A stretch of DNA of 29,244 nucleotides, taken from Blepharisma japonicum. Its lineage: Eukaryota > Ciliophora > Heterotrichea > Heterotrichida > Blepharismidae. The stretch lies in contig CATKHK010000176.1 of the NCBI GenBank assembly GCA_949751835.1, forward strand, positions 1-29,244, given 5' to 3'. The translations under genes and the position numbers were made by a program. The notes under the pieces are model-generated. The model had not been told where the DNA came from. It saw nothing but the letters and a program-made list of their open reading frames with translations, and searched no databases. Numbering within the stretch: position 1 is the stretch's first letter; every line of letters starts with the position of its first letter. Shown piece by piece: positions 1 to 27,014 of this stretch.

Positions 1-1439
1 GAACTGTATCTATAGAGCCAGACGGAAATCAGAGAAGTTTGCCTACAATAGGGATTTATAACTTGCGCTGAGATAATAAAACACATTTTTTATATGAACA
101 ACTTGTAGGAATATATGATAGTAGTAGATTGCAACTAATTACATTATATAGTAGCGTTATATGATATGATAATACTACAATAACGCCTTCCGATTCAGTT
201 GTATATGAGAATGGCTGCCCATTTCCTAAAAGGAATATTTCTCATTCTAGCAAAGGAGTCAATGTTTTATATGGAATATCAGCAGCTATAATAACTCTTA
301 CAATTATCGAGTCATTTGTTATATGAAAAAAATTATGAAATAAAATATATATAGAAAAATTAGTAGTGTCAGTTTATATACATTTTGAGGATTATTTTAT
401 TATGGGAATTTTGGCTATAGATGCTTTGCAATTTATTTCTCAAGGCTCAGATATAAGTGATTTGTATGTATGATTATCAAAAGCTTGCAGCTACTCAATG
501 GCCCATTTTGATTATTCAGTTAAAGGAGAAGTTTACTGAGGTTATTTATACTCTGCAATGATTATTTCTTGCTATTGAATATTTTCAACATTTATCTTAC
601 TTTTCAAACTCAATAAAATTGATAGTTTTATCTTAAGAAATGCCTGAAATATTTCTTTATTTTTACTTCCAATAATTGTAAATATTTTATTTATGCCTAT
701 GATTTCAATACTTCTAAGTATTTTTCAATGTGATGAAGGAATAGGCTCAAATATTTCTGATTCTTTTATAAAGAATGACTGCACAGTTCATTGCTGGAAT
801 CATGAATATGCTCTATGAGCAACTTTTTCATTAATTTCTTTGATAGTTTTTATTCCTTCAGCAATTTACTTTAGATATTTTTATGAGAATATTAATAGCC
901 ACATTAATATAAAAACAAAACCAAGCTTCATTATAAAAAAAGCCATTTTTCAAGTGATAATTGCTGTCATGAATAAAACAATAAAAATATATGATGAAGC
1001 TTTACATGGGCTTTGCTGCAATATCCTTCTCTTTATACTAATCTTGTTATGCTTTAAAAATAACCCTTATAATTATAGCAGAATGAATTTCTGGCTAGTT
1101 ATATCTTATTTAGCAGTTTTGTGGAGTTTCACATTATCATCATTTTATTGATTTACAAAATTTGATCCATGAATAATGTGAATTTTATTGCAATACTTAG
1201 TTTGGCTTATCTTAATAGTAGCTGGAATCATAATTCAATGAAAATCAATCCCAAGTTTATTATCGACTGATAAGACAATAGATATAGCAATCTTTTTTCG
1301 ATTTTCAATGGGTGGCAAGATTTCTCCTGAAGAAATAAATAAAATGAAAAAGGAAATCGTGGAAAATAAATGTTTAAGCAGTGATAAAAAAACATTCACA
1401 ATAAATTACGATGAGCAAATGATTTTAGTTTCAAACTAA
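1..1439 (+). CDS. Receptor family copy 1, C-terminal 478 residues (5' end outside window)
   Basis: Read with TGA as Trp, one open frame runs from base 3 to TAA at 1437-1439. It begins inside the end of the ligand-binding ectodomain (TVSIEPDGNQRS, matching the F-x-G-x-SG-x-V...GxR signature that closes ANF-receptor domains). It then has a linker ending YENGCPFP, about eight hydrophobic segments and a polar tail. A loop with conserved Cys (QCDEGIG...NDCTVHCW) separates segments 4 and 5. The tail carries the family motif DIAIFFRFSMG...EINKMKKE. It is closely similar to the copy at 3742-7326 and should be an integral membrane receptor of the same type. The N-terminal half, including start and signal peptide, lies upstream. 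No break is visible in the part present. Function beyond a membrane receptor is inferred from family shape. Confidence 0.8.
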
Positions 1440-1630
1440 ATATTTGTCAGATATCGATAATTAAGTAAAATTTGTGCTAATTTGAGTATCTTTAATAATC
1501 ATTAATTTATATTATTATACAGAATTTAAAGAGCTTGACGCTAAAAGAGTCACTGAATTGACTGAAATAGCACGGATGCTTGAGAGAGTTAAAAAATTAA
1601 CTAAATTTTTATCATCATCTTGATTCCAAA

Positions 1631-3216
1631 ATGATAAAGAATATTATTTTTGTTGTCTTGCATGCTACGATGCTACTTTTGAATGGAATTGAATTAACTA
1701 TAAAGCAAGGCAAAAATGTGAGAGATCATGAAATAATGAACAGTAATTTGAGAAAACAAAAATTTGTAGGGTGCTCTGGGACCGTATCGATAGAACAAGG
1801 GAGTAGTCAGAGAAGCTTTCCTAAAATAGGGATTTATAATATAAGATGAGATAAAGCGCACAGTCATTATATGAGGAGTTTGTGGGGGTATATGATCCTA
1901 GTAGTATACAATTGATCACTTTATATAGCAGCATTATATGATATGATAATACAACGATAGCTCCGATTGACTCAATCATGTACGAAAATGGCTGCCCATT
2001 TCCTATAAAGGATATATTTAGGTCTGAAAAAGGAACTGGAGTTTTATATGGGATTTCAGTGGCATTGATATTTATTACTATTATTGAAGCCCTTTTTATA
2101 TGGAAAAGGCATTGAAAAAATATTAAAATTGAAAAATTAAAAAATGCTACACAAGTTCAATTTGAAGACTATATACTTATGATGGTTCTGGCCATGGATT
2201 TTTTTCAAATTATTTCCCAGGGGTCTGGTATTAGCGAATTATTCTTCTTAATATCTAAGGCATGTAACTATTCGTTGATTAAATTTACTTTTTCAGTCGA
2301 TCGGGATATTTACTGAGATTACTTATATTACTCTCTGATTATTTCTGGCTATTCATTTTTTGTGGCATTAATATTAATTTCTAGGCCGAGTAATTGTGTG
2401 ATATTGAGATATGCTAGAAGCCTTGCCATAATTTTACTTCCAATTATTGGGAACGCTTTATTTTTACCTATAGTTTCAATAGTTTTAAGTATTTTCCAAT
2501 GTGATCAAGGAACTGGTTTAAAGATTACTGACTCTTTTATAAGACAAGACTGTACAATGAATTGCTGAGACAATAAATATTCTATATGAGGAGGGCTTTC
2601 AATAGCCTCTTTAGTGACTTATATCCCTCTTACAATTTATTTCAGATATTTTTATGAAAATTTCAATGGCCAAATAAATATAAAAACACAGCCTATTTTT
2701 ATTTTAGAAAAAATAATCTTTCAGGTTATAATTGCTGTTTTGTATAGAACATTAAAAATTTATGATGAATCTCTGCATGGTCTTTGCTGCATTGTCCTTA
2801 TCTTTATAATGATTTTATTAAGCTTCAAGCAAAGACCTTACAACTATAGCATAATGAATTTTTGGCTGATTACTTCATATTTTGGTATTTTATGGAGTTT
2901 TGCTTTATCATCTCTATATTGATTCACAAAATACAAATCTTGAATAATGTGGATTTCGCTTCAATATTCTGTATTACTTATCTTAATAGTAGTTGGCTTT
3001 TTGATCCAATGAAAGTGTCTTCCAAGCTTATTAATTACTGAAAAGTCAGTGGATATTGCAATCTTTTTCAGATTTTCAATAGGAAGTCAAATATCTGCTA
3101 GTGAAATTAATAGAATGAGAAAAGAAATCATCGAAAATAAAACTTTTATCAATGAAGAGCAATCAAATATTGATTCTTCTCAAGCTATTTTTCAGACTTC
3201 AAAAAAGAAAATATAG
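1631..3216 (+). pseudogene. Receptor family copy 2, truncated and frameshifted
   Basis: Homology to the intact receptors starts near 1655 (HATMLLLNGIELTIKQG) and runs to TAG at 3214-3216. The first part (1631 to about 1857, ending GIYNIRWDK) is in one frame. From 1861 (QSLYEEFVGVYD) the match continues in another. Between the shared Asp codon and the shared Leu-Tyr, copy 1 has 15 bases and this copy has 14, so one base is lost. A 15- or 16-base intron cannot restore the frame. A second frame change is possible at 1660-1675, where a short repeat (tgctacga, tgctact) occurs. The two Venus-flytrap modules present in the minus-strand copies are absent upstream. The membrane part (about 450 codons) stays open and keeps every family landmark, so decay looks recent. 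It may be transcribed but should not make a full receptor. Confidence 0.7.
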
Positions 3217-3741: not shown

Positions 3742-6700
3742 TTAATTATCAAAATCTGATTGCATATTTAGCCTGTAACTAGAAACATTGGATTGTTCAT
3801 CGAAATTTGGTGTTTTTGAGATGCTCAAATAATTGTCATTAACAGTTTCTCTTTTCATTTTATTTATTTCTTTAGCAGATATCTGACTTCCAAATCCAAA
3901 TTTCAAAAAAAATGCTATGTCTACTCCCTTATCAGTCATCAATAAGCTTGGAAGCGATTTTCATTGGAATATTATCCCAATTACTATAAGAATAATCCAA
4001 ATTAATCATTCTATTATAAATCACACTATTCAATTATCAAATTTTGTAAGTCAATAAAGTGATGATAATATAAAATTCCATAAAATTGCAAAATACGAGA
4101 TAATTAGCCAGCAATTCATTCTGCCGTAGTTATATGGATTGTTTTTAAAGCATAAAAAGATTAGTATTGTAAGAAGAATCACGCAGCAGAGACCATGTAA
4201 GGCTTCATCATAATTTTTTATAGTTTTATTCATAACAACTATAATAACTTGAAAAACTGCTTTTTCTATAATAAAACTAGGTTTGGTTTTTATATTAATA
4301 TGACTGTTAATATTCTCATAATGATTTCGGAAAAAAAGCACTAAGGGAATAAATACTATCATAGATATTATTGAGAATGCTGCTCATAAATAGTAATTGT
4401 TATTATTATTCCAACAATATATTGTGCAGTCGTATTTTATAAAAGAATCAGAAATATTTGAACCTATTCCTTTATCGCATTCAAAAATACTTAAAAGTAT
4501 AGAAATCACAGGCACAAACAAAATATATCCAATAATGGGCATCAAGAATAAAGCAATATTTCTAGTATATCGCACTATTCAAATATCAATTCTCTCAAAC
4601 TCAAAAAATAAAATAAAAGCTGTAAAAACCCAATAGCAAGAAATAACCATTGCACCATATAAGTAAACTCAGTAAATATCTCCTAAAGTTGAAGAATTAA
4701 AATTAATAAGTGAATATTTGCATATTTTTGATAATCACACATTTAATTCACTTATATCTGGGCCTTGAGAAATAAATTGTAAAAAATCCAATGCTAAAAT
4801 TCCCATAAGATAATAATCCTCAAAATGCACTCTAGCGGGGACTATTAATTTTTCTATATTTATTTTGAATCAGAATATTTTCCAAATAGCAAACGATTCA
4901 ATAATTGAAAGAGCTATTAGGGCTCCTGATATTCCATATAATATATTAGCACCTTTTTTGGAATAAAAAATCTTACTTTTAGGAAATGGGCAATTATTTT
5001 CATACACTATAGAATCTGTAGGTGTTATTGTAGAATTATCATATCAAATAATGCTTTGGTATAAATTAATCAGTTGCGCACTGCTTGTGTCATAAATTCC
5101 TACTAGTTCCTCGTATAGTAATTGGGTATTATTGTCTCAACGTACGTTGTGAATCCCTATAGTAGGTAGACTTCTCTGGTTGCCCTCTGACTCAATAGAA
5201 ACAGTCCCAGAACACCCTAAAAATTTTTGTTTTCTCAAATTTATATTTAACGCATGAGAATCTTCTACGTTTTGACCTTGCCTTATAGTAAATTCTATTC
5301 CATGTAGAAGTAGCATTGTAGCATCAAAAGAGTAGCAACTAAAAACTGAGGATCCTCCATATTCTTTTAAATAGCCATTTTCCATCTTTTTCCCAAATTC
5401 TCCAAATCATTCAGCATGAAAAACAACAACAGACCCATATAGCAATTCAATAAGCTTACTAATTTGTGAGACATCCGTCTCCCATGTAAGCGAATATGCA
5501 ACTCTTCCATTTGATAAAAAAATGGCATCGCCTCTTCTTAATCCTGTATCATAAAAGCTTTCAATTACATGGTATCAAGAAGGAACATTCAAAAAAATGA
5601 CATAAAGCCTGACATTTAAGCTTATTAAGCTCTTGAATCAATCCTTTCATTGTGAGTATTTATCTAATGTGTAGGTTGTATTCATTTTCCGCATATCAGG
5701 AGTATTTGCAATTTTTATTTTAAATTTATTTGCAGTTTTCATATTAAATTGATCTATTAATGATATGAAATATTGACAATCAAGGTCATTAATATCATCA
5801 TAAAGGACTATAAAATTTTGCCACCTAAAAACAACTGCAAGATCCAGCATAACTTTTGCATTAAATTTTATATCTTTCATGATTGTCATGAACTCAGGAA
5901 ATGCTGTTTTATTTTGTAAAGTACTTGAAGGAGAATATGGAGAAACACTAGGTATAGAGCAATTTAGAGATCTCAATGTATAAATATAACTAATACTATC
6001 TGATGAGAAAAGTGATGTTATAAATCCTACAGCTGGCGTGCTTAATGCACGAGAAAAACAGAAATTCCGAGCATATGTGTCTCCTGCACACATAAGCTCA
6101 GTTGAGGTTATTTCAAAGCCTTCTAAGTAGTGTGCACTTTTCCAATAGATTAAAGTATAAAGGATTCCAGATGATAGTCCTAGCGCATTATCATATCATA
6201 TATTAATATAACTAAATGGAGAGTTAGGGACTATTCAAGAGTCTCCTGGAAAAGAAAGAGGAGTAAATACAGTCAAATTTCCTTTAAAAATATTTCCAGA
6301 TATAAGCTTTTGACTATTTTTTGTATTCAGGAGGGTAAAATTTGATATTGGATAATTATTAACTGTAAAAAAATTAGAAATCACACAGTCAGTGCTTGAG
6401 CTAAAATTTTCATAGCAACTTTCATTTAAAAACGAATTTGCAAATGTTGGGTGTTTTATTTTTCTTACCTTTTCTGTCTCTCTTATATAGTAACTATTTA
6501 ATCTCTCAAAGAGACTGAGATCAGATGAATAATCTAAATTTAGAATAATTTTCAAAAACTTGATAAATGCTAACCCTTCATAACTATAAAAGCTATCAGC
6601 ACTCTCTAGTCCTGATTCTGCAAAACCAATTATCCCATTTCCTATTAAACCTCATGCACCTTCACTTCCTACAATAATCCCAGTTCCATTCGTAAGCAAA

Positions 6701-7326
6701 TTTTTTTCTTCTAAAGCTTTCAATAACAATTTTGTGCTTTCCCCTTGATTTAGTATCACAATATTTCTTATACCAATAGGCTGAATTACTCTTCCTATAA
6801 ATAAGTTTGCTGAATTTTCATTATTACTATTAGCGAAAAAGTATCAGCGGTAATTTTTTTGGTTAAAATAATTAGCAAAAATTTCACTATTTTCATTGCT
6901 AATTTGATCAGAAATTACAATAAAAGTTTGCCAATTAAAATAAGAAATAATCCCATATAAAGCTTCGATTTGGCTTTCTCAAGAATTGTGTATAAAAAAT
7001 TCTCAGTCGCGATGGGCAAGAATATGTGTATAAATACTGGTAATTATAATTTTTTCCTCTTCAGCAAACTTTTTGATTGATTCTGATAACGTGATACTAA
7101 AAGTAAGGTCAAAAATAATATCTGGGCTTTCTATAGTCTTGATTTCATCCCAGAGACTATCAATGTAAATAAGATTAAATTCAAACTCATCTTTGAAACT
7201 ATTTTTAGCCAAAGCAGTCAAATTCGAAACAAAGTGTATATCTGCAAAAGAACTGTAAATAATATCTACAATAAGCTGACTTGTTAAGCAAATCTTTGCA
7301 AAGAGTAAGGCAGCTAAAAACTTCAT
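3742..7326 (-). CDS. Intact double Venus-flytrap multi-pass receptor (copy 3, 1194 aa)
   Basis: One uninterrupted frame with TGA as Trp, ATG at 7326, TAA at 3742-3744. Residues 1-16 (MKFLAALLFAKICLTS) are a signal peptide. Residues about 20-370 form a first type 1 periplasmic-binding fold: IIFDLTFSITLS, then a Trp-containing YFNWQTFIVISD that begins lobe 2. Residues about 375-775 form a second: HYLEGFEI, VGFITSLFSS, FRWQNFIVLYDD, then FLGCSGTVSIE near 703 and NQRSLPTIGIHNVR. This order follows ANF-receptor/GABA-B-like ectodomains, without a Cys-rich stalk. About eight membrane segments lie between residues 790 and 1116, then a cytoplasmic tail with DIAFFLKFGFG...EINKMKRE. Ligand and signalling partner are unknown; amino-acid-like ligands are usual for this fold. 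The membrane part is not a clear match to seven-helix class C. It lies downstream of copy 4 on the same strand. Confidence 0.85.
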
Positions 7327-8021
7327 TTTTGATTTTTTTTATTTTTAAGAACAAGTATCAAAATTTCTAAAATAATAAGAGAAAATTATAATTTAATTGA
7401 ATTTTTATTAAACTGATTATAAAAAAATTAATATTCAATATAAAATGGGCAATAATTTTAAGATCAAGCAGTGCAACTACTCTGCTTATTTTCTGCTTAA
7501 TTTCCTATTGACTATATTAGCTATCCGTACTAAATTTCTGGTTAATATTCTAATGCCAATATACAGATTAGAATATCAAACCCTAGCTGTTAATAGATTA
7601 CTTATCCACTGTCGAACTTGTTGCACAGCTCATCTTTCAAATTTTAGGGGTCCTCTTCTATTTTTTTGTCAAGCACATTCAATGCTTGTGCTTCAAGAGT
7701 TCGAGGGTTTGAGAAATCGCTCACCAAAATGCTCTATTTCAGCCAAGCTGCATATTTTCCTAGTTAATTAAGGTGATTCTGCTCTTAATCGCTTTGCTCT
7801 CACCATTGGAAGGAATTGAGACCAGATATGGCTTTAAAGCCGTTTCGAAGTAATGCCCACTATCATATGCCACTAAGCTATAATTAGTTCTATGAATAGC
7901 CAGATTTTCGGCTCTAAAAGCCTTATTAGCGTAATATAATGAAAATATTAAATTAATATAAGATTTGGTAACCTGCTTATTTACATATAAATAAATTATT
8001 ATTTTATTATTCTCATTAAGA
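7327..8021. other. Spacer between receptor copies 3 and 4, with a GC-richer centre
   Basis: The first ~115 bases are AT-rich and should contain the promoter of copy 3. From about 7560 to 7930 the sequence is visibly less AT-rich than other spacers. A plus-strand ORF (7445-7771, TAA stop) shows no domain I recognise. The minus strand holds protein-like fragments, listed separately. Confidence 0.5.
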
Positions 8022-8032
8022 TTATGGGTATT
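7760..8032 (-). pseudogene. Unidentified minus-strand ORF fragment, no in-frame ATG
   Basis: On the minus strand a frame without TAA/TAG runs from 8032 to TAG at 7760-7762. Its last ~55 codons read like ordinary protein (RAENLAIHRTNYSLVAYDSG, then HYFETALKPYLVSIPSNGES). No ATG lies in frame. A second protein-like stretch follows in another frame (SILVSDFSNPRTLEAQALNV, about 7720 down to 7640). This suggests a broken gene relic trapped between the receptors. I cannot name the family, and chance cannot be excluded. Confidence 0.25.
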
Positions 8033-11000
8033 TTATACCTTCTTCATAGATAGGATAAAATGATTCATTTCTAACAGCAGAAGTGTTCGGCTTTTCTGTA
8101 ATAATTTCTAAAAATAAATGTTTAGCTTTAGCTCGTTCTTTATTTTTATCATTTATTTCTGCGGCTGCAATTGAGCCACCCAGTGAAAATCTGAAAAGAG
8201 TTCCTATATCAGTCATTTTTTCCCTAAATAGCATGCTGGGGCAATGTTTTCATTGAATATGAAACCCAGTAATAATAATTAATGCTCATCCAATATATTG
8301 AAATGCAAGCCATAATTGATTTATTCTAGATGAAACTATTCAATACAATGAAGATAATGTAATGCTTCAAATAATTGCAATATAAGAAATAATTAATCAA
8401 AGATTCATTCGACTATAATTATAAGGTTTCTTTTTGATACAAAGCAATACCAAACCAAATAACAAAATAATTAAAATCAGCCCATGCAAGCTTTGATTGT
8501 AAATTTTCAGAGTTTTGCTTAATATAATTATCGAAATTTGAAAAAGACTTTTTATCATCAAAAATCTTGGCTGAGCTTTTATATTTATGCAGCTATAACT
8601 TATATACCAAAATGGTCTTAAATAAATAGCAAGAGGTAGATAAATAATTAAAGAAACAGCAGACAGTATAGCTCATTGAATGTGACTATTTTCTCAACAA
8701 ACTGTTGTGCAGTCATTTTGAAGAAATGCTTTATTTATATTTAATGATCGTTGTTTGTTGCATTGGAATATGCTAAAAAGGATAGATGAAATAGGCAAAA
8801 AACAGGCATTTCCTAATACTGGTAATGCCATTTTTGATAAAATTCTAAAAAGCACTAGAAAAAAATTTTGAGTGTCTTTTCCAAAATTAAAAATATTTTC
8901 TATACTGAAAAAGACTCATATGAAAACAGCTATTAAGGCAGAATAAAAGTAAATTCAAAATGTTTCTCTTTCAGTGACTAAACTAAAATCTGCTATAGCA
9001 AATTTTGTAAAATAACTTACTAGAGAATCATAGTTGCCCATATAAGGACCCATCCCTAAAATTTGCAAAAAATCAATAAAAACTATAGCCATTGCTAGAT
9101 AATCTTCAAATTGAATTAAAGATCTCATCGATAATTCTTCAATTTCCTTTTTCCACCATTTCTTTCATATAAAAAATGTTAAAACCGCAGTTATTGTTAA
9201 AATTCCAATTGAAATCGCATATAAAATTCCAGCACTTTTAGCAGAATATACAGCTTCGTTTATATCGAAAGGACAATTGTTTTCATATGTAATTATATCT
9301 TTAGGGGTATTTGTGGTATTATCTGATCATTTTATATGACTTGTAAAGCTAATTAGATTGGTGCTTCCACGATCATAGACTCCTACCATAAATTCATTAT
9401 AATATTGAGCTCTCTCATTTCATATTATATTATAAATCCCTATAATTGCAGCACTCCGATCATTAGAGTCAGGCTCAATTGAAACTACCCCAGAGCAGCC
9501 TAAAAAATTTTGTTTTCTTAAATTAATATTGAGAATTTTAGATTCTTCAAGGTTTTCACCTTGAATAATCGTGTATTTTATTCCATTCAACAAAAGCATA
9601 GCAGCATCAAAAGATAAACATCTTCAATCAGTGACATCTGAGTAAGCTTTAATGAAACCTTCTTTCATTTTTTTACCATATTCTCATATTCATTCAGCTT
9701 CATTGATGCTTATTGCTCCATACAATAACTCAATTAATTTTGCTTTTTGAGATAGATTTGCTTCAACATCAATTCCAAAGCCTACTTTATTTGGAAATAG
9801 AAGAACAGAATTTTTCCTTGTAAGTCCGACATCATAGAAATCTTCAATTAAATAAAATTCAGCCGGAGGGGTAATAAAAAGTATAAATGGCCTTGTTTTT
9901 AAGCTTATTATATTTTGCATTCAAATTTTGTATTCAGGATAATCACTGTGGTTATAATTTTCCTTAATCATTCTATTAGAATTAACTATATTGATATTAT
10001 ATTCCTCAGCTTTTGCAGCAAAATATTGATAAATCAATAAATTATCAGACGAATTTTCATATATCAAAATAATATTTTTCCAATCAAAAAGTAAAATCAA
10101 ATCAATAAGAACCCTTGCGTTGTACAAGTCATCTCTTGCCATTCTCATAAATTCAGGAAAATTTGTTTTATTTGCTAAAATTCCAAGCGGGGAATATTCT
10201 GAAATATGTGGAATAGTTATATTTAAAATTCTCATAGAAATTATATTACCAATAACAGTAAGTGGGAATGAAGTAGTTAAAAACCCAACACCAGGTACAT
10301 TTTTAAGCTCTCTAAAACAGTTTATAGAGTAGATTGGGTCATAAACATCAGCCCCACAATCTGTATGAGTAACTAATATCTCAAAACCTTCCAAAAAATG
10401 AGTTGCTTTTATATATTGTAAAGCATATTTTGCTCCTTGTTTTAATAAAGTATAAGCACTGTCAGGATAGCCTGGATTTGTATTGCCATCTGCCATTCAT
10501 ATATTGATATAACTTATAGGATAGTTTGGGATGCTTGATGAATTTCCTGGAAAATTTAAATCTTTTTCATAAATAGTAAAATTCGTATCTGTTGATTGTC
10601 CTATTATAATTTTTTGGCTATTTTTGATGTTAATTATTGAAAAAAGAGGCTTTTGGTGATGATTAACTGTATTTTTTTCTAAATATTCTCGTAAAGCTAA
10701 AGAGTCATAATAATTAGGATATGCAAAAATAATATTGAAAAATTGTATTAAAGCAGAAGATTCATAACTATAATAATCAACAGCATTTTCTAATCCTGAT
10801 TCTGCGTATCCTAAAATTCCATTTTCATTTATACCTCAAATACTTTGACATCCCATAATGACTCCGCATCCTAATCTAAAAATATTTTTGTTCTTCAATC
10901 CTTCAAGCAAAATTTTAGCATTTTCTGCCCTATTTAATATCACAATATTTTTTATCCCAGTTGGCTTTATTTCTTTGCCTATAAAATTATCAGCTGCTCA

Positions 11001-11498
11001 TTGATTTTGACTTGAAAATCGATAAAAAGTTATTTTTTTATCTGGAAAATACATCATAAGATCATTTTCATCTCCATACTCATTTAATATTAGAATAAAT
11101 TTCTTTCAATTTAGATAAGAAATCAAACCATTTATAGTTCGTAAATGGTCTTTTTCCAACATATGAGTGGAAAACTCTCAATCATTGTAACTATTGCCAA
11201 TATCCCTCATTGAAATAAGTAAAATATTCCTTAAATTGCAAAACTGCCTGAGAAAATTCGATAAAGAGATACTAGAAGTTAGATCCAAAATTATTTGCGG
11301 ACTGTCAGAATATTCTAATTGCTGGGAGTATAGGTCAATAAATTGGAGCTTTAATTCAATATTGTCAGCAAAGGATTTTGTTAATGATGCTGATATAATT
11401 TCCAATAATTTTCAATCAGTTGATGAGCTATAAAAATGTTCAATCAAAAGAAAGGCTTGGGAGAAGTAGAGGTATAATAACGAGTTAAAAATTCCCAT
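8022..11498 (-). CDS. Intact double Venus-flytrap multi-pass receptor (copy 4, 1158 aa)
   Basis: Continuous frame with TGA as Trp, ATG at 11498, stop at 8022-8024. I chose this start because it adds a hydrophobic leader (NSLLYLYFSQAFLLIEHF) like a signal peptide; the next in-frame candidates would remove it. The first ligand-binding module (about 30-340) contains IILDLTSSISLS and YLNWKKFILIL. The second (about 345-745) contains HFLEGFEILVT, VGFLTTSF, FDWKNIILIYEN and the closing FLGCSGVVSIE near residue 666. The linker YENNCPFD leads into about eight membrane segments from residue ~756, with the loop QCNKQRS...NDCTTVCW. The tail has DIGTLFRFSLG...AAAEIN and ends IYEEGIKYP. It is the most divergent of the four copies yet keeps each landmark, which argues that the doubled ectodomain is ancestral in the family and under constraint. 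Ligand unknown. Confidence 0.85.
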
Positions 11499-12972: not shown

Positions 12973-15900
12973 ATGATCCGTATTGTGACTATTTTTATGC
13001 TTCAGCTGTTAATTGCTGCAAGTTTAGTTTCTGGGTTGAGCATTAATTGCAATCTAAACGTATGCCCAGGCTCAAATGTAAAATTTATATAGAGAGGAGA
13101 TGATTATTGTGACCCGCTTTGCATGTTTCCTTATTGTGAATATGACTCTGTTGACTCGGCTTCACCTCAAATTCAAATACTAAATTCAGATTGCCTGTGA
13201 GATTGCTTATATTATATAGGTTGCGATTATTCACTATTAGGGAACGGAGTTTGCGATCAAAGCTGCAATTCGCCTTATTGTGGATTTGATTTAGGAGACT
13301 GTGGATATTGCTGGAATGGATGTAAATTTTATTTAGGCTATGAATATATGCTAGGAGGAACTTGTGATGAGGCTTGCAATGTTATAGCTTGCTACAACGA
13401 CATGGGAGCTTGCAAAGATTGTGCCACAGGCTGTACATCTGACATGCTAGGAAATGGAGTTTGCGATCCTGAATGCAATGGACCTTTCTGCAACTATGAT
13501 TTCGGCGACTGTGAGAATTCTATATGTGCTCCAGGCTGCTATACTTATATGATTGGAGATTCTACTTGCCAAGAAGAGTGCCATGTCAAGGAATGCAATT
13601 ATGATGATTATGATTGCGATTGCTACCCTGGATGTACTTCTTCGATAAGAGGCGATGGAAAATGTGATTCTTTATGTAATAATACTGCTTGCTCTCTTGA
13701 TAATCATGATTGTGGGGACTGTTCATCAGGATGCTTTGATACGATGCTGGGAAATCTTGAATGTGATAATGCTTGCAATAATAAAGATTGCAACTGGGAC
13801 TATGGAGACTGTGGATGTGCTGACGGATGTGCTTTATCAGATTTTGGAAACTGTAAAGCTGAATGCCTTGTTGGAAAATGTGCCTATGATCAAATAAGCT
13901 CAGATTCCTCAAAAAGATGCAATAATAAAGGACTAGTTTTACTTGATTTATATCAAAATTTAGTCAAAGGCTCTTTTGATAGTGCTCCGAATTATTTCTG
14001 GTGTATCTATAACTCACGCACCTACAGTTCTGATACAGATCAGTGAGCAACTTGTGATGTCACCAAAGCTTATGATTTTACAAACTGCAATCAAATCTGT
14101 GATATTGCTGATTGTGCTTATAACTGAATAAATTGTGAGCCTGAAAAGTCATATAACTGCAAAGATGATAACTGTTTAAGCTGCTATGGGACTGATGAAG
14201 GAAAATGCTTTAAATGCAGTGAGTCAACAGTACAGCTTTTTGGGTATTGTGCAGAAATTTGCCCTTATGGGTATGAAGCGAAAGAAATTATGGACAGCAA
14301 CCCAATTTGTTTGCCATTAGTCGACATTACGACACCGAGAAACCCTTATGTTTATTATGCAAGTTCCAAAAAATACGGAGATGTGACAGGAGGGGAAGGG
14401 ACTTTGGAATCTCCTTTTGAAACTTTTGCAGTTGCTCTAGCATTAATTCAAAGAAAATATTCAATACTTTATCTAATAAATGATGGGGATTATGAGTGGG
14501 CGCCTGTTGATGAATTTTACTTTGTAAATAATTTTATAAAAAATAGCCGATCTCCGCTTGCTCATCATAATTCAGAGGACACGGGGACAATGCTATATAT
14601 AAAAATAGCAAGTTTGGATGGAAGCACTATAAAAATAAAGACAATTCGTGATGAAACCAACATATATATCGGGCTTTGGTCTGGACTAACCTTAGAAATT
14701 GAAAATGTCATTTTTGATGGAACTCTAACTACCGCAGCATGCTCTAGCCTAACATACTGCAGCTATTGCCCTTATATTGAAAAGCAGTTAGATGGCTCAT
14801 ATAAGACTGATCATGGACAAAAAATCAAGGCATCAGAATATTTGTCGTCAACATTTTGCACTACTTATAACGACGATTATTTATTTGGAGTGCCAAAACA
14901 AGCTATCTTAAATTTAACCAATGTAACCTTTTCCAACTGGGGAACTCTATATTATGCCTTAATAGAAAGCTGAGGAGGAAATATTACTCTTAATAATGTA
15001 AATTTTGATAATATCGTTATTTTTAGCGATGAAGTGGCTGCTGTCATTTCAATGCAAGATTGTGACGATCCGTTTTATAATTGCGGCACTTTGAATTTCA
15101 CAAATGGGAAAGTATCTAGAATTAACAATGGCTTTGAATATGCTGATCCAATTGACTTTAGAGGGTTTTTGTATGCTGAAAGAATTCAATATGCAGCTTT
15201 TACAAATGTAATTTTTGAAAAAAATTTGGTGGCTCTTCAGACGTCATCCGCTTTCGAAACTGGTTCTCTTATTACCCTTAAAATATTTCGAACTTTAGAA
15301 ATTAACAATTGCCAATTTATTTCAAATATTGCAGATACAGGAATTATTAATATTGCGTCAAAAGGTTTAAATTTTGTAATATCAGTAAACGAAAATAATG
15401 AGCTTACTGATTTATTGGAAGATCACATATATATACACAATTCAACATTTACAGGAAATTATGGGAAATTTTATGGGATTTTATATGCAAGTTTCAAAGG
15501 GCAACTTCAAAACTTTCGATTTGAAAATCTGAGCATTAGTTCTAACGGAGTTGAAAGTGGATCTTTGATATATGTCACAAACAATGAAATTAAGACCGAA
15601 TATGAAACAGACACGATAAAGTCAGCAACTTTATCAACAACAGGGCAGAGAGTCACTGCTACTTATAAAGCTCGTTGATTTATTATAAAATATATTAATT
15701 TTTTTGAAAATTATTCAGGTGGCTCTGGGATGATTGATATTAATAACTTAGTGAATATAGAGATTAATAGTTTGTCACTAGATTCCAATGGCGCCAGTAC
15801 AGATATTGATGTAAACAATATAATACTTAATGATTGAATAGAGGATTCAAGTATGTATCTTAAACTGCAATATAGTAATGCTGCTCTTATTGACTGCTCT

Positions 15901-18900
15901 TCAATGATGTCTGTTAGCTCGTCAATTAATATTTCTATTTCAGATTTTAGTATGACCAATAATTATTGTCAGGAATCTTCACCTGTGTTTATCTTATCAA
16001 AAATTGCAGAATTATCAATCTCAAAGTTTAATTGCACAAAAAATGAAGGAAATGGAGACCATCCGATATGTGTGTATTTTGTAGGTACTATAGAAACCTC
16101 TATTATAAACTCTAGTTTCATGAACAACATTAATCATTATTCATCTGGGCCAGGAGCAATTGGCACTATAACTGCTAATTTAAATCTGACCTTAGAAAAT
16201 TGCTTATTTCAATCGAATTCTGCTGGGTATGGAGGTGCATTGTATTTCCAAGGGAGATTTTTATATATTTCGAAAAGTATTTTTATTACGAATGAGTCTC
16301 CAAATGAACTCGGAGGAGCTATTTATTATTCTCCTCAAATCACCTATAAAAACTCAGGATTTTTTATTAACAGCTGTATTTTCAACAAAAATTGAGCTGT
16401 TAGTGATGGAGGGGCTATCTATATTGAAGAAAAAATTATCGGCTCAACAAAAATTGATCTTCAGTTTAAAAATGCTTCTTTTTACTATAATTCTGCCGAA
16501 AACGGAGCAGCGATATATATAGAAAAAACAGCTGCTTTAAGCCAGACTTCTTCAATAGTAGATTCTCATTTTTTTAACAACACAGCAAATTCATCAGGGA
16601 CTTTATCAATTTCATTTTATAACGGAATTTTGTCAATTACCGATACTGATTTTTCAAAAAATTATGCTAAATGAGGAGCAGCAATGTATATTACCACAAA
16701 AGAAGACGGTTCTTCATTAAGATCACAAACTATATTAGACACCTGTACAATTACAAGTAACTCAGGAGAGTCAATTATTCATATGGACGATTTAAGCCAA
16801 TATTCATATTTGGAAACGATAAATTGCCTTTTCGAGTTGAATTTAGGGACTGTTATATTGCTTAATTATGATAATTGGATAGAAACAGCGTCAATATTTA
16901 GATATAATACTGCAAGTAATGGAGGTAGCTCAGTAAGCCTGCAAAACAAAGCAACAGGAGAGTCAACAGGAACTCTTTTCTACGAAAATACAAGCAAAGC
17001 GACTGGAGGAGCTGCATCAATTAGCTCTCAATCAATTTTTAAATGCTCTTTTTGCAACTTTACAAATAATTATGCAGAAAATTCTGGTGGAGTCATTTAT
17101 GTTGAGCAAAATTCTTTGATTTTAATAGAGGATACTGTAATTACTGGAAATTCTTGTCTTAAAAAGGGTTCTGTGATGTATCTTTTAGGGACTTCTTTAG
17201 TTTCTTCTCAAGTTATAAGTACAGATATATACAATAATCAAGCATCTGAGGGAGCAATAGTCCTTTTAGATGCGTCTATTTTGATTGAATCTTCAAAAAT
17301 CCATGAGAATTTATCAGACGAAGCAAGCCCCGGTTTGATTTTGACCCTCTCAAATGCGACTATTTCTAACTCTCAATTTTATTCTCAACTTAGTAAGCAA
17401 GGATGCTTTATATATTCATCTACCCAAAGCTCTTTATATATTTCTAACTCAACCTTCCAAAATGCTGTTTCTTCAGGGTCAGGAGGTGCCATATTCGCTA
17501 TTTCTACCTCAATTACGACATTAAACTGTCTTTTTTCAAATCTCCAAGCGAACTCTGGAGGGGCAATACTAGCTTATTCTGATAGCTCTCTTCTTATCCA
17601 GTCTTCTAATTTCACAGACCTTACTTCATATAGCACTGGCGCAGTTTTCGATTTATACCAAAGCAACGTAACAATATTGAATTCTTTTTTCCAAAATTTT
17701 TCTAGTACTGGAATTTATGGAGACAAATTAGGAAATTTATATATTACAGGCTCATCTTTTAATAGTGCTAATGGAGTTAATGGAGGAGCAATATATTGTA
17801 TAGCTTGCTCTGATATAGCCATCAAAAACAGTAAATTCGTGAACTGCAATGCTACTCTTGGCGGTGCTGTTCATTTGTTAACCTCTTCAGATGCACAGAT
17901 AAACTCTGTATATATCATAGATCAAACCTACTTTATAAATAACACAGCTCTAAATGGAGGTGCACTCTATGCAAATAACATTCTATTGAATCTAACAAAC
18001 TCTTACATATACCATAATCATGCATTTGTGTCAGACTCAGATCAAGAAAACACAAAAATTCAATATGGAATTGGAGGAGGCCTTTTCTTAAACTGCAAAG
18101 ATCTTGATATATGCGAATTTTACCTTATTAATAATAATTTTGAAGAAAATGCAGCAAGCTATAATGGAGGAGCCTATGCGTGAGATGATATTATGCCGAT
18201 TTCTATCGATAATATTTTTTTGAGTAATTCAGCAGCTTATGCACCAAATGTTGCATCCTATCCAATTTCAATGGCTGCAGAATCAAGTAATTCATCATTA
18301 AGGAGGCTAGAAAGCAGAAGACTAGGAGATCCTCTAATTATTGCTAATTTAGAGAATGTTGCTTCAGGTCAAACTTATACAACACCATTAATTATTTCTT
18401 TAATTGATCATGATGGAAACGTTGTAAAGACTGATAATACAAGTACTGCTGAGCTTCAGACTATTGATAACAAAACAACAATTTCTGGAGGAGCCAGAGT
18501 ACTAGCAAACGAAGGAGTATATACATTTTCTTCATTTACGCTAACAGGGTATCCAGGAATAAATACCAAGATTTTAGTATATACATCAGCTATTGATACA
18601 TCAAAAAGCACTAAGGCAAAAGATGATGTGGAGTACCATCAAGTTGTGTTTATTAATGTTACTTTTAGACTCTGCCTAATTGGAGAGGCAACTGTAGGAA
18701 ATTTATGCAAAATCTGTGGATCAAACTATTATAGTTTAGATCCTTCCATCCCTGAATGCCAGACATGCCCCGATAATGCTATTTGTTATGGAAACTATAC
18801 GATGGTCCCAAAACCCGGCTATTGGAGAGATAATATGTATTCAAGTGTCTTTTGAAAATGTCCAAATTCAAATGCTTGTCTTGGCTCACCTGACGCTGGC

Positions 18901-20520
18901 AATATTTCATATACAGGAGAATGTGATAAAGGGTATAAAGGAAATATGTGTCAGTCTTGTGAATACGGCTACTCAAAAACAGCTGAAGAAGCTTGCAGTC
19001 CTTGTCCAGATGATACTTCGAATAGTTTGAGAATTGCTGGCGTTTCTATAGCTCTCATAATTATCTGTGCAATTATGGTAAATTCAACGAGAAGATCTGC
19101 ATTTAAACCTACTTCACTAGCATCAATTTACATAAAAATTTTTATGAATTATTTACAGTTAGTTATGCTTGTGACTACTTTTAACTTAAAATGGCCAAGC
19201 CTTGTATGGAAAGTATTTTCTATTCAAAATACAGCTGGCTCAGCAAATGATCAAATTTTTTCTTTTGACTGTTTTTTGCAGGTTAAAGATGATCCTGATC
19301 AATATTATTATAGTAAGCTTATACTAATGAGTCTTGCGCCTTTGGTTATTGCACTAACTTCTCTAATCGCATGAATTTTGATATATACTAAGAAGAAAAG
19401 CTTTAAGCATTTTAGGAATGATTACATATCTTCATGCGTTATTTTATTGTTTTTAATTCATCCAAATATTGTAAAAATGATGTTTGGAGCATTTAGCTGC
19501 AAACAAATAAATTCAGGAGAGCGATGGCTTACAGCAGATTATGATATCAGATGCTGAGATAGCAAGCATGTTTTTTATTTGTGCGTAGTTGTTATTCCTT
19601 CAATTATACTCTGGGGTATTGGAATTCCAGCTTTATGCTTACTTAATTTGGTGAAAAACCGAAGAAAACTCAATGAAATTAGTCCAAGGTTAATGTTTGG
19701 ATTTTTTTTCAATGGTTATAAAAAATCATGCTATTATTGGGAATTTATTATTTTATATAGAAAAATTTTGGTGATTTGTTGTTCTGTCTTTCTGGCTAAT
19801 ATTTCTGTCAGTGTTCAAGCTCTTAGCGTAACGATAATACTTGCAGCCTCCCTCCATCTTCACTATACAAATAATCCCTATAGTGGTCCAGTTTTAAATG
19901 AATTGGAATTAAGATCAATTTTTGTATCAGCCATTACAATTTATTGTGGACTTTATTTTTTAACAGATTCTTTAGATGAAACTAGTAGATTTATATTTTT
20001 CTTGATTATAGTGCTCGCAAACGTTTATTTTTTATATTATTGACTTTTTAAATTAATTGATACGGGATTGAGAAGTTTGCAAAAAAGCATACCTTTTCTT
20101 AAGCACAAGTGATATAAAAATGATGGCTATGATGATAAATTATTTGAAAATCCTAAAAGAGGCCATATAGTAACAAAGGAAGGTGAAGAATTTTATTCAA
20201 TTTTACACAGCATCCCACAGAAAAAAGAGAGAAAAGATGTATTTGATCCACATTTAACTATGGCAGATGTGTTTATCGGCATGATACCAGAAACACTTGA
20301 ATATGAAGAAAGTCCAGAATGCAGCTCTCAAGAAAAAAATGATATAGCTTCGTCCTTTAAAAATTCTGATTTTGAAATTGAATTGCCAACATCGGCTGAA
20401 AGGTCTAAGGAAAAAGATAGGCATATATATGGAACTGATGGAGAAGAAGAAGAAGAAGAAAAATTGGAAAGCTTGAGTTTAACATTGGAGCAGGAGATTC
20501 TTGAACTTAAAGTTGATTAA
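12973..20520 (+). CDS. Large LNR / Pmp-like beta-helix / multi-pass surface protein (2510 aa)
   Basis: ATG at 12973 opens a signal peptide (MIRIVTIFMLQLLIAASLVS). After a 15-base intron (13078-13092) one frame with more than a dozen TGA-Trp codons runs to TAA at 20518-20520. Residues about 25-380 hold eight or nine Notch/LNR-like Cys repeats, for example CTSDMLGNGVCDPEC. A Cys-rich patch (about 370-425) follows. Residues about 550-1760 form a long repeat region with recurring GGAIY/GGALY, F-x-N-N and N-S-F/C motifs, typical of Pmp-like right-handed beta-helix proteins. A second Cys-rich module (about 1896-2010, CGSNYYSLDPSIPECQTC) precedes about nine membrane segments (2016-2355). The acidic cytoplasmic tail contains DGEEEEEEKLESL. 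Ciliates carry many large surface proteins with beta-helix plus GCC-type module plus multi-pass ends; the N-terminal LNR array is the less usual part. Likely plasma-membrane adhesion or sensory role, unproven. Confidence 0.85.
13078..13092 (+). other. 15-base spliceosomal intron, phase 0
   Basis: The bases gtaaaatttatatag lie between codons 35 (Asn) and 36 (Arg) of the LNR gene. They start GTA and end TAG, and if retained they would place TAG in frame. Removal joins a Cys-containing repeat smoothly (CPGSN then RGDDYCDPLC). The length matches the 15-16-base introns of heterotrich ciliates. Confidence 0.85.
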
Positions 20521-21272: not shown

Positions 21273-21944
21273 TTAAGAATCTTCAATTTCCTCAACATTT
21301 TGACTATTCCCATCAAGCCCCTTCACAAACAAATCTCTCCATCCCAAAATCGTTTTTTCACTGATTCCCAGCATTAGTGCAATTGGTTTTGCATACCCTG
21401 CTTTGATTACCAATTTGACTATTTCCTCTCTAATTTCGTTGTCCAGCAATTTATTATACAATCTTTTTGCCCTGCTCATCATTTCTTTAATTTCATCACA
21501 TTTTTCCTGAATTTCTGGGGTAAGTAGTTCCTTTACATTACTTAAGGTAAGTGACTCATTGCCTTCTTTAATTTTAAAGGTCGATTTGCAGAACCTTTCT
21601 ACCGATTTTTCTGTAGGTTTTTTGAAGCCTTCTAGAACTCCATTCGTAAAATGAAGGCTTTGAGAAGATGGGTCATTGTCGGCTTCTTTAAAACAATTAG
21701 GGTTTTCTCTTCATTGCTTTCTTCAAGATTTTATGTGGCTGTAAGAAATGTTGAAAAGCTTCATTAAAATGCTCCTTCCACCATATTGGTCATAAATCTC
21801 AACGATTTCTTCTTTTAGGCGATTCGGAACTTGCTTGGCTCGAAGGATCTTGCCGTTGTAGAGAGGTTTTAGTTCGGCTTTTATTGCTTTAAGCCTGAGA
21901 GCAAGTTCTCGGGTTTTTTCTTGATCTGATAGATATTCATTCAT
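21273..21944 (-). CDS. Protein with two helix-turn-helix repeats (223 aa)
   Basis: ATG at 21944, stop at 21273-21275, one frame with three TGA-Trp codons. Two regions repeat each other: residues about 43-80 (KEEIVEIYDQYGG...LFNISYSHIKSWRKQW) and about 169-206 (REEIVKLVIKAGY...MLGISEKTILGWRDLF). Each has the E-E-I-V helix, a Gly turn and a recognition-helix-like IS..xI..WR of transposase-type or Psq-like helix-turn-helix domains. The link between them is polar and Lys/Glu-rich; the C-terminus is acidic (NVEEIEDS). There is no catalytic domain, so it looks like a DNA-binding protein, possibly a domesticated transposase N-terminus. It is 233 bases downstream of the first methyltransferase on the same strand. 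A role in regulating that cluster is only suggested by position. Confidence 0.65.
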
Positions 21945-22177
21945 TTTTAGTCCCCTGTTTTTATAAAAATATTTTTTAAATTTAAAATTAAAATATAATT
22001 TTCTTTTGCTAGAGCCCGCTAATATTTAAGATTAGTATACAAAAATATTAAGGAAATTTCTATATCTAAAAAATATTTGAAGGTCTGACAATATAAATGA
22101 AATGCACATTTAATCTAAAAATTTTTAATTTTAATTCGAAATGAATTTAAATTGAGTTTAGATTGAACTAATCTTAA
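21945..22177. other. Short AT-rich spacer
   Basis: Separates the first methyltransferase 3' end from the helix-turn-helix gene start on the same strand; it should hold the promoter of the latter. No distinctive motif is seen. Confidence 0.4.
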
Positions 22178-23188
22178 TTAAATTGCTGTTGCGCTGACAA
22201 CATGATCATTAGTTGATTGAATATGAACCACGCTATCAAGTCTAAAGCCAGTTTCATTGAGTAAAGCTTCAAGTTGCTCCTTCGATCTTTCTTTTCCATT
22301 TAAGACTGCCATCATGTGAATATCAGCCATTCTTGCTATGAAATAATTATCACTTGACCTATCAATGACAGCATCTATGATCTTGAGCTGTTTTCCTACC
22401 TCTAAAGCCCTTCTGCAATTCTGTAAAATTTTTTTTGAATTTTCATCATTCCAGTCAAGCAAAATATGCTTCATAAAGATGCAGTCAAAACCTTCAGGGA
22501 TATTATTTAAAAAACTGCCTGAAATTACACTGAATTTTTCTTGTAAATTATTATCTGAGAAAATTTTTTCTGCTTTTGATTTGACTTCTTCAAGCTCATA
22601 AACAGCACCCGATATGTGAGGGTTTCACTTCAATAGCTCAATAAGAAGTGAGCCATCTCCTCCTCCTACATCAAGAACTCTGTTTGCTGAAGAAAGATCG
22701 ATTATTTTGTAACCATCTCCAGAAACTTGAGTAATTGCTCTCATAGATCTTTGGAAAGTTTCTAAGAGATCTGGATGAGCTGAGAGGTACTCAAAAGAAT
22801 GGCATCCAAAACGTAATTCCAAAGAAGATGTATTCTGTTTGGTTGATTCAGTGAATTTTGAGAGCATTTCAAGTGAAAATGGATTTCCAAGCCATCTTGC
22901 GATTGCATTGATTTTTTCGTCTATTAGAGCATCAGAAAGAGGAGAATTTGACCATAGGCCAGTTTCTTGATTAAATGAGAAGAATCCCAAAGGCTCTAAA
23001 GCCAATAAAATTCTTTCTAACTTTTCTGGAATTGCTGGAGTTTGCTCTGCTAATTGAGAGAAAGGTTTTGGCTCAGCAAGAAGTTGTGGGATATTAAATT
23101 CAACAACTGCATGAATCATCGCAGTTACTTGTGGCCCCAATAAGAACTGATAAATTTTCCCAAGGTTAGCAAGTCTATCACCCTCCAT
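22178..23188 (-). CDS. Family-2 O-methyltransferase, copy A (336 aa), catalytic His replaced
   Basis: ATG at 23188 (MEGDRLANLGKIY), stop at 22178-22180, with one TGA-Trp at 22625-22627 where copies B and C use TGG. The N-terminal winged-helix dimerisation domain (about 10-100: FSQLAEQTPAIPEKLERIL) precedes the SAM-binding motif VLDVGGGDGSLLIELLK (about 172-188). This matches the COMT / hydroxyindole O-methyltransferase (ASMT) family at its usual length, which methylates hydroxyls on small aromatic molecules. In this family the general base is the His of an HDW motif. Copies B and C have HDWDDEN, but this copy reads LLDWNDEN, so His is Leu (codon ctt against cat). SAM binding looks intact, while normal catalysis is doubtful. 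It may be an inactive dimer partner or have an altered role. The frame is clean, so it is not an obvious pseudogene. Confidence 0.8.
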
Positions 23189-23685: not shown

Positions 23686-24695
23686 CTAAATTGCTGTTGC
23701 ATTGACAGCATAGAAAATTCCTGGTAGGATTCGAACAATATTGTCAGGCCTAAATCCAGTTTCATTCAGCAAAGCTTTGAATTGCTCTTTTGTTCTTTCT
23801 TTTCCATTTAAAAAACCCATCATTTGAATATCAAATACTCTTGCGAACCAATAGAGATCGCTAGATCTCTCAAGTACTTGATCAATAATTCTAAGCTGAT
23901 TTCCTGTCTCTAAAGCTTTTCTACAATTTTGAAGTATTTTTTTGCAATTTTCATCATCCCAGTCATGTAAAATAAACTTCATAACTATGGATCGTAACCT
24001 TTAGAAATATCAATTAAAAAATTGCCTTCAATAACACTAAATTTTTGTTGTAAATTGTGATCTGAGAAATTGTTTTCGGCTTTAGGTTTGACTTCTTCGA
24101 GCTCATAAACAGCACCCGATATGTGAGAGTTCCACTTCAGTAACTCAATAAGAAGTGAGCCATCTCCTCCACCTATATCAAGAACTCTGTTTACTGATGA
24201 GAGATCAACTGATTTGTAACCATCTCCAGAAATTTGAGTAATTGCTCTCATACATCTTTGGAAAGTTTCTAAGAGATCTGGGCGATTACCAATATACTTG
24301 AAAGAATGGCATCCAAAACGTAGTTGAATAGCTGATGTATTCTCTTTGACAGATTCAGAGAATTTTGAGAGCATATCAAATTCATATGAAATTCCAAACC
24401 ATCTTGCCATTGCATTGATACTTTCGTCTAATAGAAGTTCGGATAGAGGAGAATTTGACCATAAGCCAGTTTCTTGATTAAATGAGAAGTATCCTAAAGA
24501 CTCTAAAGCCAATAAAATTCTTTCTAACTTTTCTGGAATTGCTGGAGTTTGCTCTGCTAATTGAGAGAAAGGTTTTGGCTCAACAAGAAGTTGTGGGATG
24601 CCTAAATCAGCAACTGTATTAAGCATTTTAGCAATAAAACCTCCTAAAAAAGTTCGATAAATTTTATCAAGGCTAGAAGCATTATCGCTCTCCAT
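23686..24695 (-). pseudogene. Family-2 O-methyltransferase, copy B, broken by a one-base deletion
   Basis: ATG at 24695 (MESDNASSLDKIY), chosen because A and C begin the same way (MEGD, MESD). The SAM motif VLDIGGGDGSLLIELLK is intact. At about 23989 the codons for KGYD-C become KGYD-P followed by TAG (23985-23987). Copy C has gattgcata here and this copy has gatccata, one base shorter. The total length is 1010 bases against exactly 1011 in A and C. The remainder, with the catalytic HDWDDEN and the terminal NATAI, continues in another frame from 23982. A 15- or 16-base intron would not restore the frame. The product would stop at about 236 residues without the catalytic His. Codons are otherwise conserved, so the break is recent or a sequence error. 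Confidence 0.75.
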
Positions 24696-24730
24696 TAAAA
24701 GCAAAAAAAATCTAATAATTTAATAATAGA

Positions 24731-26931: not shown

Positions 26932-27014
26932 AATCACTGAATATGGTTATTGAAATACACATCATGATAAGCAGCAATTAAGACTATTTCTTAAATTTTT
27001 TCTCAAAATAATGT
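26932..27014 (-). repeat. LINE ORF terminus and first 3' bases, repeat unit 1
   Basis: It contains the last codons of the LINE ORF (TLFWEKI, stop at 26991-26993) and about 60 following bases; it is repeated in diverged form at 26753-26835. Confidence 0.55.

What the first reader, a model, noticed from the sequence alone, without database searches (positions are those of the whole stretch)
3742..11498. Receptor family with two tandem Venus-flytrap modules on one multi-pass protein
Both intact copies (3742-7326, 8022-11498) contain two successive type 1 periplasmic-binding/ANF-like modules before the membrane part. Each module has its own strand-Trp-strand signature (YFNWQTFIV and FRWQNFIVLY; YLNWKKFIL and FDWKNIILIY). 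Class C GPCRs and related receptors normally carry one such module per chain and dimerise. A doubled ectodomain on one chain could give two ligand sites or an intramolecular dimer. I do not recall a described family of this form, though I cannot search.
Basis: partly seen in the sequence, partly recalled or inferred. Interest (0 to 1): 0.8.

Follow-up and report, generated by a model that had tools for sequence, protein, structure and literature searches.

The report
Ciliate receptors with two flytrap modules
Two neighbouring genes in this ciliate belong to a family of at least about 200 gene copies whose proteins carry two ligand-trap modules in a row, joined to a multi-helix membrane part that is not the usual receptor type and is shared with a different group of giant proteins.

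Summary
Two intron-free minus-strand genes, open with TGA=Trp, encode 1194 and 1158 residues: signal peptide, N-terminal flytrap module, C-terminal flytrap module, multi-pass membrane part. The C-module is unambiguous. The N-module is weak in single sequences, but a 33-paralogue profile matches the solved GluN1 flytrap domain (2.5e-11), and 21 of 33 N-modules match PF01094. The architecture is in 44 of 45 paralogous loci read. N- and C-modules form two fully supported groups, so the pair predates the expansion to at least about 200 loci. These are not class C GPCRs: 0 of 33 membrane parts match 7tm_3. The membrane part has no Pfam or PDB relative but matches that of a neighbouring LNR/DUF7630 gene family (94.5%, beyond controls). 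Two flytraps on one chain is not new: trypanosome receptor cyclases have it (PMC6027212). Joining them to this multi-pass core was found in none of my ten literature searches. Best reading: chemoreceptors. Ligand, output and stoichiometry are untested; both structure predictions failed.

The parts
3742..7326 (-). Intact receptor gene 1 (P0001, 1194 aa, no introns, TGA=Trp)
7279..7326 (-). Likely signal peptide of gene 1 (residues 1-16)
   Evidence: hydrophobic N-terminus; no signal-peptide predictor was run
6208..7278 (-). N-terminal flytrap module of gene 1 (residues 17-373; about 40 residues longer in the middle than P0002)
   Evidence: Pfam alone 0.0011, below cut-off; family profile to GluN1 N-terminal domain 2.5e-11
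4954..6207 (-). C-terminal flytrap module of gene 1 (residues 374-791)
   Evidence: Pfam 5.4e-15 alone; family profile to GLR3.4, GABA-B and other class C flytraps
3940..4953 (-). Membrane part of gene 1 (residues 792-1129)
   Evidence: no Pfam or PDB relative
3745..3939 (-). Short C-terminal tail of gene 1 (residues 1130-1194)
8022..11498 (-). Intact receptor gene 2 (P0002, 1158 aa, no introns, TGA=Trp)
10509..11450 (-). N-terminal flytrap module of gene 2 (residues 17-330)
   Evidence: Pfam alone 0.07, below cut-off; aligned with the family
9237..10508 (-). C-terminal flytrap module of gene 2 (residues 331-754)
   Evidence: Pfam 5.5e-17 alone, profile 6-350 of 353
8229..9236 (-). Membrane part of gene 2 (residues 755-1090)
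3..1439 (+). C-terminal end of a third copy, cut off by the start of the contig
   Evidence: aligned
1440..3216 (+). Decayed fourth copy: open from 1855, C-module remnants upstream in shifted frames
13093..20520 (+). Neighbouring giant gene (five LNR matches, multi-pass end); only its membrane part is related to the receptors
19405..19974 (+). Stretch of the giant protein matching receptor segments TM4-TM8 (approximate ends)
   Evidence: hhalign A3 vs A7

Best explanation
The two genes encode cell-surface chemoreceptors of a large family in a Blepharisma-like ciliate. Each chain has two type 1 flytrap modules in tandem outside the cell and one membrane core, probably of about nine helices, that is not a class C GPCR core. 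Likely mechanism: a small, probably amino-acid-like ligand closes the membrane-proximal C-module. The shorter, more diverged N-module packs on it as an allosteric partner, a built-in counterpart of the second subunit of GABA-B or of the N-terminal domain of NMDA receptors. The movement is passed to the membrane core, a transducing unit also used under a quite different (LNR-bearing) ectodomain. Shown: the two modules by sequence, their order, their fixed pairing, purifying selection on all three parts in the pairs tested, family size, and the shared core. Inferred: surface location, chemoreception, ligand class, roles of the two modules, coupling to the core.
For: Two modules. Same order in 44 of 45 paralogous loci read: 37 of the 38 best matches of two searches and 7 of 7 that I picked on other contigs. 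N- and C-modules split 17/17 with 100/100 support, so the pair is ancestral to the family (17 of 38 loci used). dN/dS medians 0.23 (N), 0.22 (C), 0.21 (membrane) over 14 pairs that I chose, 13 usable for N. N-modules are 384-389 aa in L001, L002, L003, L006 and 300-357 aa in the other 33 intact loci, while C-modules are 413-432 aa in all 37: the modules are not equivalent. The C-module of L001 aligns with GABA-B1 over 3-412 of 429 residues (7.5e-12) and with a bacterial branched-chain amino-acid-binding protein over 11-372 (3.8e-11). At least about 200 loci on 56 contigs, many clustered (24 on C19, 22 on C93, 16 on C112). Core matches the LNR/DUF7630 family core (94.5%, E 8e-8; in the control run 94.1%, reversed 0.2%, block-shuffled maximum 18.3%).
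Against: No ligand, expression, localisation or signalling data. Single N-modules of the window genes are below the Pfam cut-off, and the L001 N-module alone finds no PDB chain at E<=0.001. Three of 7 further full-length members show only one Pfam stretch at E<=0.01. AlphaFold models of ectodomain and core failed (mean pLDDT 33.7 and 37.1). Counted per sequence, only 7 of 33 cores show nine hydrophobic segments, 16 show eight, 9 seven and 1 six. All relatives come from one genome.
Confidence: 0.6

Rival explanations
1. Ligand-gated ion channels: the core forms a pore and the tandem flytraps work like the stacked N-terminal and ligand-binding domains of ionotropic glutamate receptors.
For: Best PDB match of the N-module profile is the NMDA receptor GluN1 N-terminal domain and of the C-module profile GLR3.4, both channel ectodomains. 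The core is not a recognisable GPCR core.
Against: Those matches concern the type 1 flytrap only; no type 2 ligand-binding domain or channel domain was found by Pfam in the two window proteins or 7 further members. The same C-module profile also matches GABA-B, calcium-sensing and taste receptors.
Confidence: 0.2
2. Strongly diverged class C GPCRs: the core is a 7TM domain beyond recognition, perhaps with extra hydrophobic segments.
For: C-module followed directly by the membrane part, as in GABA-B receptors; matches to class C flytraps; hydropathy counts per sequence are 6 to 9, with seven in 9 of 33.
Against: 0 of 33 cores match PF00003; core profile has no PDB match at E<=10; the core is related to that of the LNR/DUF7630 family; a published survey found no family C GPCR in 27 ciliate species (PMC9960496, passages). 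The genome holds three weak 7tm_3 places elsewhere, one over the cut-off, each with in-frame TAA.
Confidence: 0.12
3. Not sensors but uptake or surface-recognition proteins (solute capture feeding a transporter-like core, or variable surface or mating recognition proteins).
For: Type 1 periplasmic-binding proteins serve transport in bacteria (established knowledge); a large clustered family with broken copies would also fit surface-variation genes.
Against: No transporter family among the Pfam matches of 33 cores (best E 0.049); similar purifying selection in all parts rather than fast change confined to the ectodomain (14 chosen pairs).
Confidence: 0.1

Closest known systems
Receptor-type adenylate cyclases of trypanosomes (PMC6027212, passages)
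   Same: Two flytrap modules on one chain, outside the cell; a protist gene family
   Different: One membrane helix and an intracellular cyclase domain there; several membrane segments and only a short tail (65 residues in P0001) here. No sequence comparison with them was made.
Class C GPCRs, GABA-B type (flytrap joined directly to the membrane part)
   Same: C-module is a class C-like flytrap without a cysteine-rich domain, followed directly by a multi-pass part
   Different: A second flytrap on the same chain; core not 7tm_3
NMDA receptor GluN1 and GLR3.4 (type 1 flytrap N-terminal domains)
   Same: Best PDB matches of the N-module and C-module profiles
   Different: They carry one type 1 flytrap plus a type 2 ligand-binding domain and a pore (established knowledge); neither seen here
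BvgS/EvgS sensor kinases (PMC4352136, abstract start; PMC8174306, listing only)
   Same: Tandem flytraps on one chain
   Different: Bacterial, kinase output; their flytraps are of the other (type 2) class, as recalled
LNR/DUF7630 giant membrane proteins of the same genome (window 13093-20520; 79 matches to its end, itself and fragments included)
   Same: Membrane core related over about 172 columns
   Different: Ectodomain with LNR repeats, no flytrap in the one protein scanned whole

Membership tests
Type 1 periplasmic-binding / ANF_receptor superfamily (C-module) | Match to PF01094 over both lobes | tested here: met
   P0002 6-350 of 353 at 5.5e-17; P0001 74-339 at 5.4e-15
Type 1 periplasmic-binding / ANF_receptor superfamily (N-module) | Match to PF01094 or to solved flytraps | tested here: met
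   Family profile to GluN1 domain 2.5e-11 covering 99-310 of 315 positions; 21 of 33 members at E<=0.01; but single window modules below cut-off and L001 alone without PDB match
Type 1 periplasmic-binding / ANF_receptor superfamily (N-module) | Two-lobed flytrap fold | tested here: inconclusive
   AlphaFold mean pLDDT 33.7 with two sequences
Class C GPCR | 7tm_3 (PF00003) membrane domain | tested here: not met
   0 of 33 members; no PDB match at E<=10
Class C GPCR | Obligate dimer, G-protein coupling | not testable with these tools
   needs experiment
Ionotropic glutamate receptor | Type 2 ligand-binding domain split around a P-loop pore | tested here: not met
   No such Pfam match in the two window proteins (E<=1) or 7 further members (E<=0.01)
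Trypanosome receptor-type adenylate cyclase | Two flytraps, one membrane helix, cyclase domain | tested here: not met
   Two flytraps present; several membrane segments and no cyclase domain
Core shared with the LNR/DUF7630 family | Profile-profile match beyond controls | tested here: met
   94.5%; in the control run score 62.1 against reversed 16.0, column-shuffled max 19.6, block-shuffled max 33.9

The most novel reading that the evidence does not exclude
A new class of multi-pass receptor: an ancient tandem-flytrap ectodomain on a non-GPCR, roughly nine-helix transducing core that this ciliate also puts under LNR-bearing ectodomains, expanded to at least about 200 loci as the main chemosensory repertoire of a heterotrich. 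Flytraps commonly bind amino acids, and the Blepharisma pheromone gamone 2 is an amino-acid derivative (PMC10892320, passages); I know of no identified receptor for it (recalled), and it could be among these.
Probability: 0.45. Interest if true: 0.82.

Novelty: new variant of a known kind. Interest (0 to 1): 0.66.

Why it matters
A survey of 27 ciliate species reported no family C GPCRs (PMC9960496, passages). This family would be missed by searches that start from 7TM domains, yet it counts at least about 200 loci here (for scale, 25,711 genes are predicted in the Blepharisma stoltei genome, PMC9942806). It offers candidates for how these single cells sense food and mates, a membrane core of unknown structure used under two kinds of ectodomain, and a natural case of a flytrap pair fixed on one chain.

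Tried and rejected
Standard code on the plus strand and on the minus strand: rejected, the frames are broken; TGA=Trp opens both genes. Introns: a 15-nt intron-like stretch lies just before the open frame of the neighbouring gene (13078-13092); none is needed in the receptors. Class C GPCR membership: rejected on the core. AlphaFold: ectodomain from two and core from four window sequences both failed, so no fold search was run. Relatives outside this genome: viral contigs and genome contigs gave none confirmed; these hold viruses and prokaryotes, so this says nothing about other ciliates. P0001 alone against the PDB: best E 0.54; L001 N-module alone: none at 0.001. The single-sequence comparison of the core with the neighbour's core was weak (23%) and became clear only with a 16-sequence profile. 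The N-module/C-module hhalign result depends on settings (94.6%; 43%, score 38.5, where block shuffles reached 35.9), so I do not claim that the pair arose by duplication inside the gene. Literature: ten searches listed no description of this architecture that I could see; I read passages of six papers, not whole texts, and most subscription journals and preprints are not held.
Full report
What was checked. The finding gives 3742-7326 and 8022-11498. Both are exact gene ends, but on the minus strand and only if TGA is read as tryptophan. With that code both are single open frames of 1194 and 1158 residues without introns. The longest open frame in 500 shuffles of the first region was 186 codons. 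TGA=Trp and a 15-nt intron-like stretch before the neighbouring open frame fit Blepharisma, for which UGA=Trp and 15-16 nt introns are published (PMC9942806, passages).

The two modules. Pfam finds ANF_receptor (PF01094) in each protein, with two stretches each at the lax threshold E<=1. Cut apart, the C-modules are unambiguous (5.4e-15, 5.5e-17) but the N-modules are below the curated cut-off (0.0011, 0.07). I therefore used the family. From 38 loci (8, 30; each the best matches of its search) I aligned 33 N-modules, 33 C-modules and 33 membrane parts; five loci were left out (L012, frameshifted; L015, L016, L021, L024, close to others). The N-module profile matches solved flytraps, the GluN1 N-terminal domain best, at 2.5e-11 over profile positions 99-310 of 315. 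The C-module profile matches GLR3.4 (1.3e-18), GABA-B, calcium-sensing, taste and mGlu receptors. Of the 33 N-modules taken singly, 21 match PF01094 at E<=0.01, best 2.1e-17. The first ~98 positions of the N-module are not covered by the PDB match.

Results against. The L001 N-module alone finds no PDB chain at 0.001. Of seven further members that I picked on other contigs, Pfam sees two stretches at E<=0.01 in four (L042, L043, L045, L047) and one in three (L044, L046, L048). N-module against C-module by hhalign is 94.6% in one setting and 43% in another, little above block-shuffled controls (score 38.5 against a maximum of 35.9; reversed 12.2). AlphaFold on the two window ectodomains failed (mean pLDDT 33.7); the alignment was two rows deep because the relatives came from a tool whose loci are not among those the predictor names.

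One ancestral architecture, many copies. All seven extra loci encode one open frame of 1145-1197 residues that I read as the same three parts in the same order. With the 38, that makes 44 of 45 loci; L012/L049 is broken by frameshifts. A tree of N- and C-modules from 17 of the 38 loci puts all N-modules on one side of a branch and all C-modules on the other (100/100), so the pair existed before these genes diverged. Whether it arose by duplication within one gene cannot be told without outgroups. Merging core matches from three searches gives 170 places, and 30 more ANF loci have no core match just downstream in those capped lists, so at least about 200 loci on 56 contigs, broken copies included. 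Six of those 30 were read in full (L004, L005, L044-L047); all six have the core. Among 14 close pairs that I chose, dN/dS is 0.08-0.41 in all three parts; in several pairs dS is near or above 1 and thus rough.

The membrane part. None of the 33 cores matches 7tm_3, and the seven Pfam families that appear at E<=1 reach 0.049 at best; the profile finds no PDB chain at E<=10. In the whole genome 7tm_3 matches at three places only, one over the cut-off, all with in-frame TAA. Averaged hydropathy gives nine distinct segments after I merged overlapping rows; counted per sequence, 7 of 33 cores show nine, 16 eight, 9 seven and 1 six. With the N-terminus outside, the loops after segments 1, 3, 7 and 9, predicted inside, are net basic (K+R 4.3, 2.9, 2.1, 1.4 against D+E 2.6, 1.2, 0.4, 0), the loop after segment 5 is neutral, and the loop after segment 4, outside, holds three cysteines that never vary in the 33 (C159, C176, C180). 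The short loop after segment 6, predicted outside, is also net basic (1.5 against 0.3), which speaks mildly against this topology. The core model failed (pLDDT 37.1).

An unexpected relative. The giant gene at 13093-20520 has five LNR matches; I read its middle as beta-helix-like repeats, for which the only Pfam support is a Chlamydia PMP repeat match below cut-off (0.069). DUF7630 matches 15 of the 16 family members aligned, the window one included, at E<=0.1 (best 1.3e-7; window member 3.4e-5, under the cut-off). It too ends in a multi-pass part with a cysteine loop of similar pattern. A profile of 16 such parts matches the receptor core profile with 94.5% and E 8e-8 over 172 columns. Controls: score 62.1, reversed 16.0, column-shuffled maximum 19.6, block-shuffled maximum 33.9; the receptor core against either flytrap profile gave nothing. 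This family too is large (79 matches, fragments included), and members lie within about 10 kb of receptor genes in this window and on C93, C64 and C32 (coordinates).

How it may work. The C-module sits next to the membrane, keeps its length (413-432 aa in the 37 intact loci) and is the closer match to ligand-binding flytraps; that of L001 aligns with GABA-B1 over 3-412 of 429 residues and with a bacterial amino-acid-binding protein over 11-372. The N-module is 384-389 aa in L001, L002, L003 and L006 and 300-357 aa in the other 33. I therefore think the C-module binds the ligand and the N-module is an allosteric partner on the same chain; this is inference. The ligand class (amino-acid-like) is inferred from the relatives of the C-module. 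Coupling to the core, a channel or some other output, is open.

What is known. Two flytraps on one chain are described for trypanosome receptor cyclases (PMC6027212, passages) and tandem flytraps for BvgS (PMC4352136, abstract start). The main texts of the two Blepharisma genome papers do not contain the word receptor (find results), and a GPCR survey of 27 ciliate species reports no family C (PMC9960496, passages). Passages of a GPCR survey of animal relatives (PMC12716839) describe one ANF domain with a glutamate-type 7TM and no tandem pair; the word tandem does not occur there. Ten literature searches listed no tandem flytraps on a multi-pass core (see Tried and rejected). Gamone 2 is an amino-acid derivative (PMC10892320, passages); its link to this family is a guess worth testing, nothing more.

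Noticed in passing
window 13093-20520 (+): Giant gene (2475-aa open frame) with five LNR matches, a DUF7630-like stretch and a multi-pass end related to the receptor core; 79 matches to its end in the genome, several within about 10 kb of receptor genes.
   Followed up: partly
window 22178-23188, 23985-24719, 24946-26085 (-): Three tandem O-methyltransferase-like genes (PF00891 tested in the first only, 2.1e-35; the others by likeness); the middle one looks shortened.
   Followed up: no
window 26991-29243 (-): Non-LTR retrotransposon-like frame with endonuclease and reverse transcriptase domains, running off the end of the window.
   Followed up: no
window 21273-22025 (-): 250-aa protein with helix-turn-helix matches (HTH_28, HTH_23).
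   Followed up: no
window about 1440-3216 (+): Decayed receptor copy: open from 1855, C-module remnants upstream in shifted frames.
   Followed up: partly
L049 / G000:C93:25300-29300: Receptor copy broken by frameshifts in the N-module and near the start of the C-module, the rest open.
   Followed up: partly
L039-L041 (C5, C25, C81): The only three 7tm_3 matches of the genome, weak and with in-frame TAA; possible class C-like cores, genes with tiny introns, or decayed genes.
   Followed up: no
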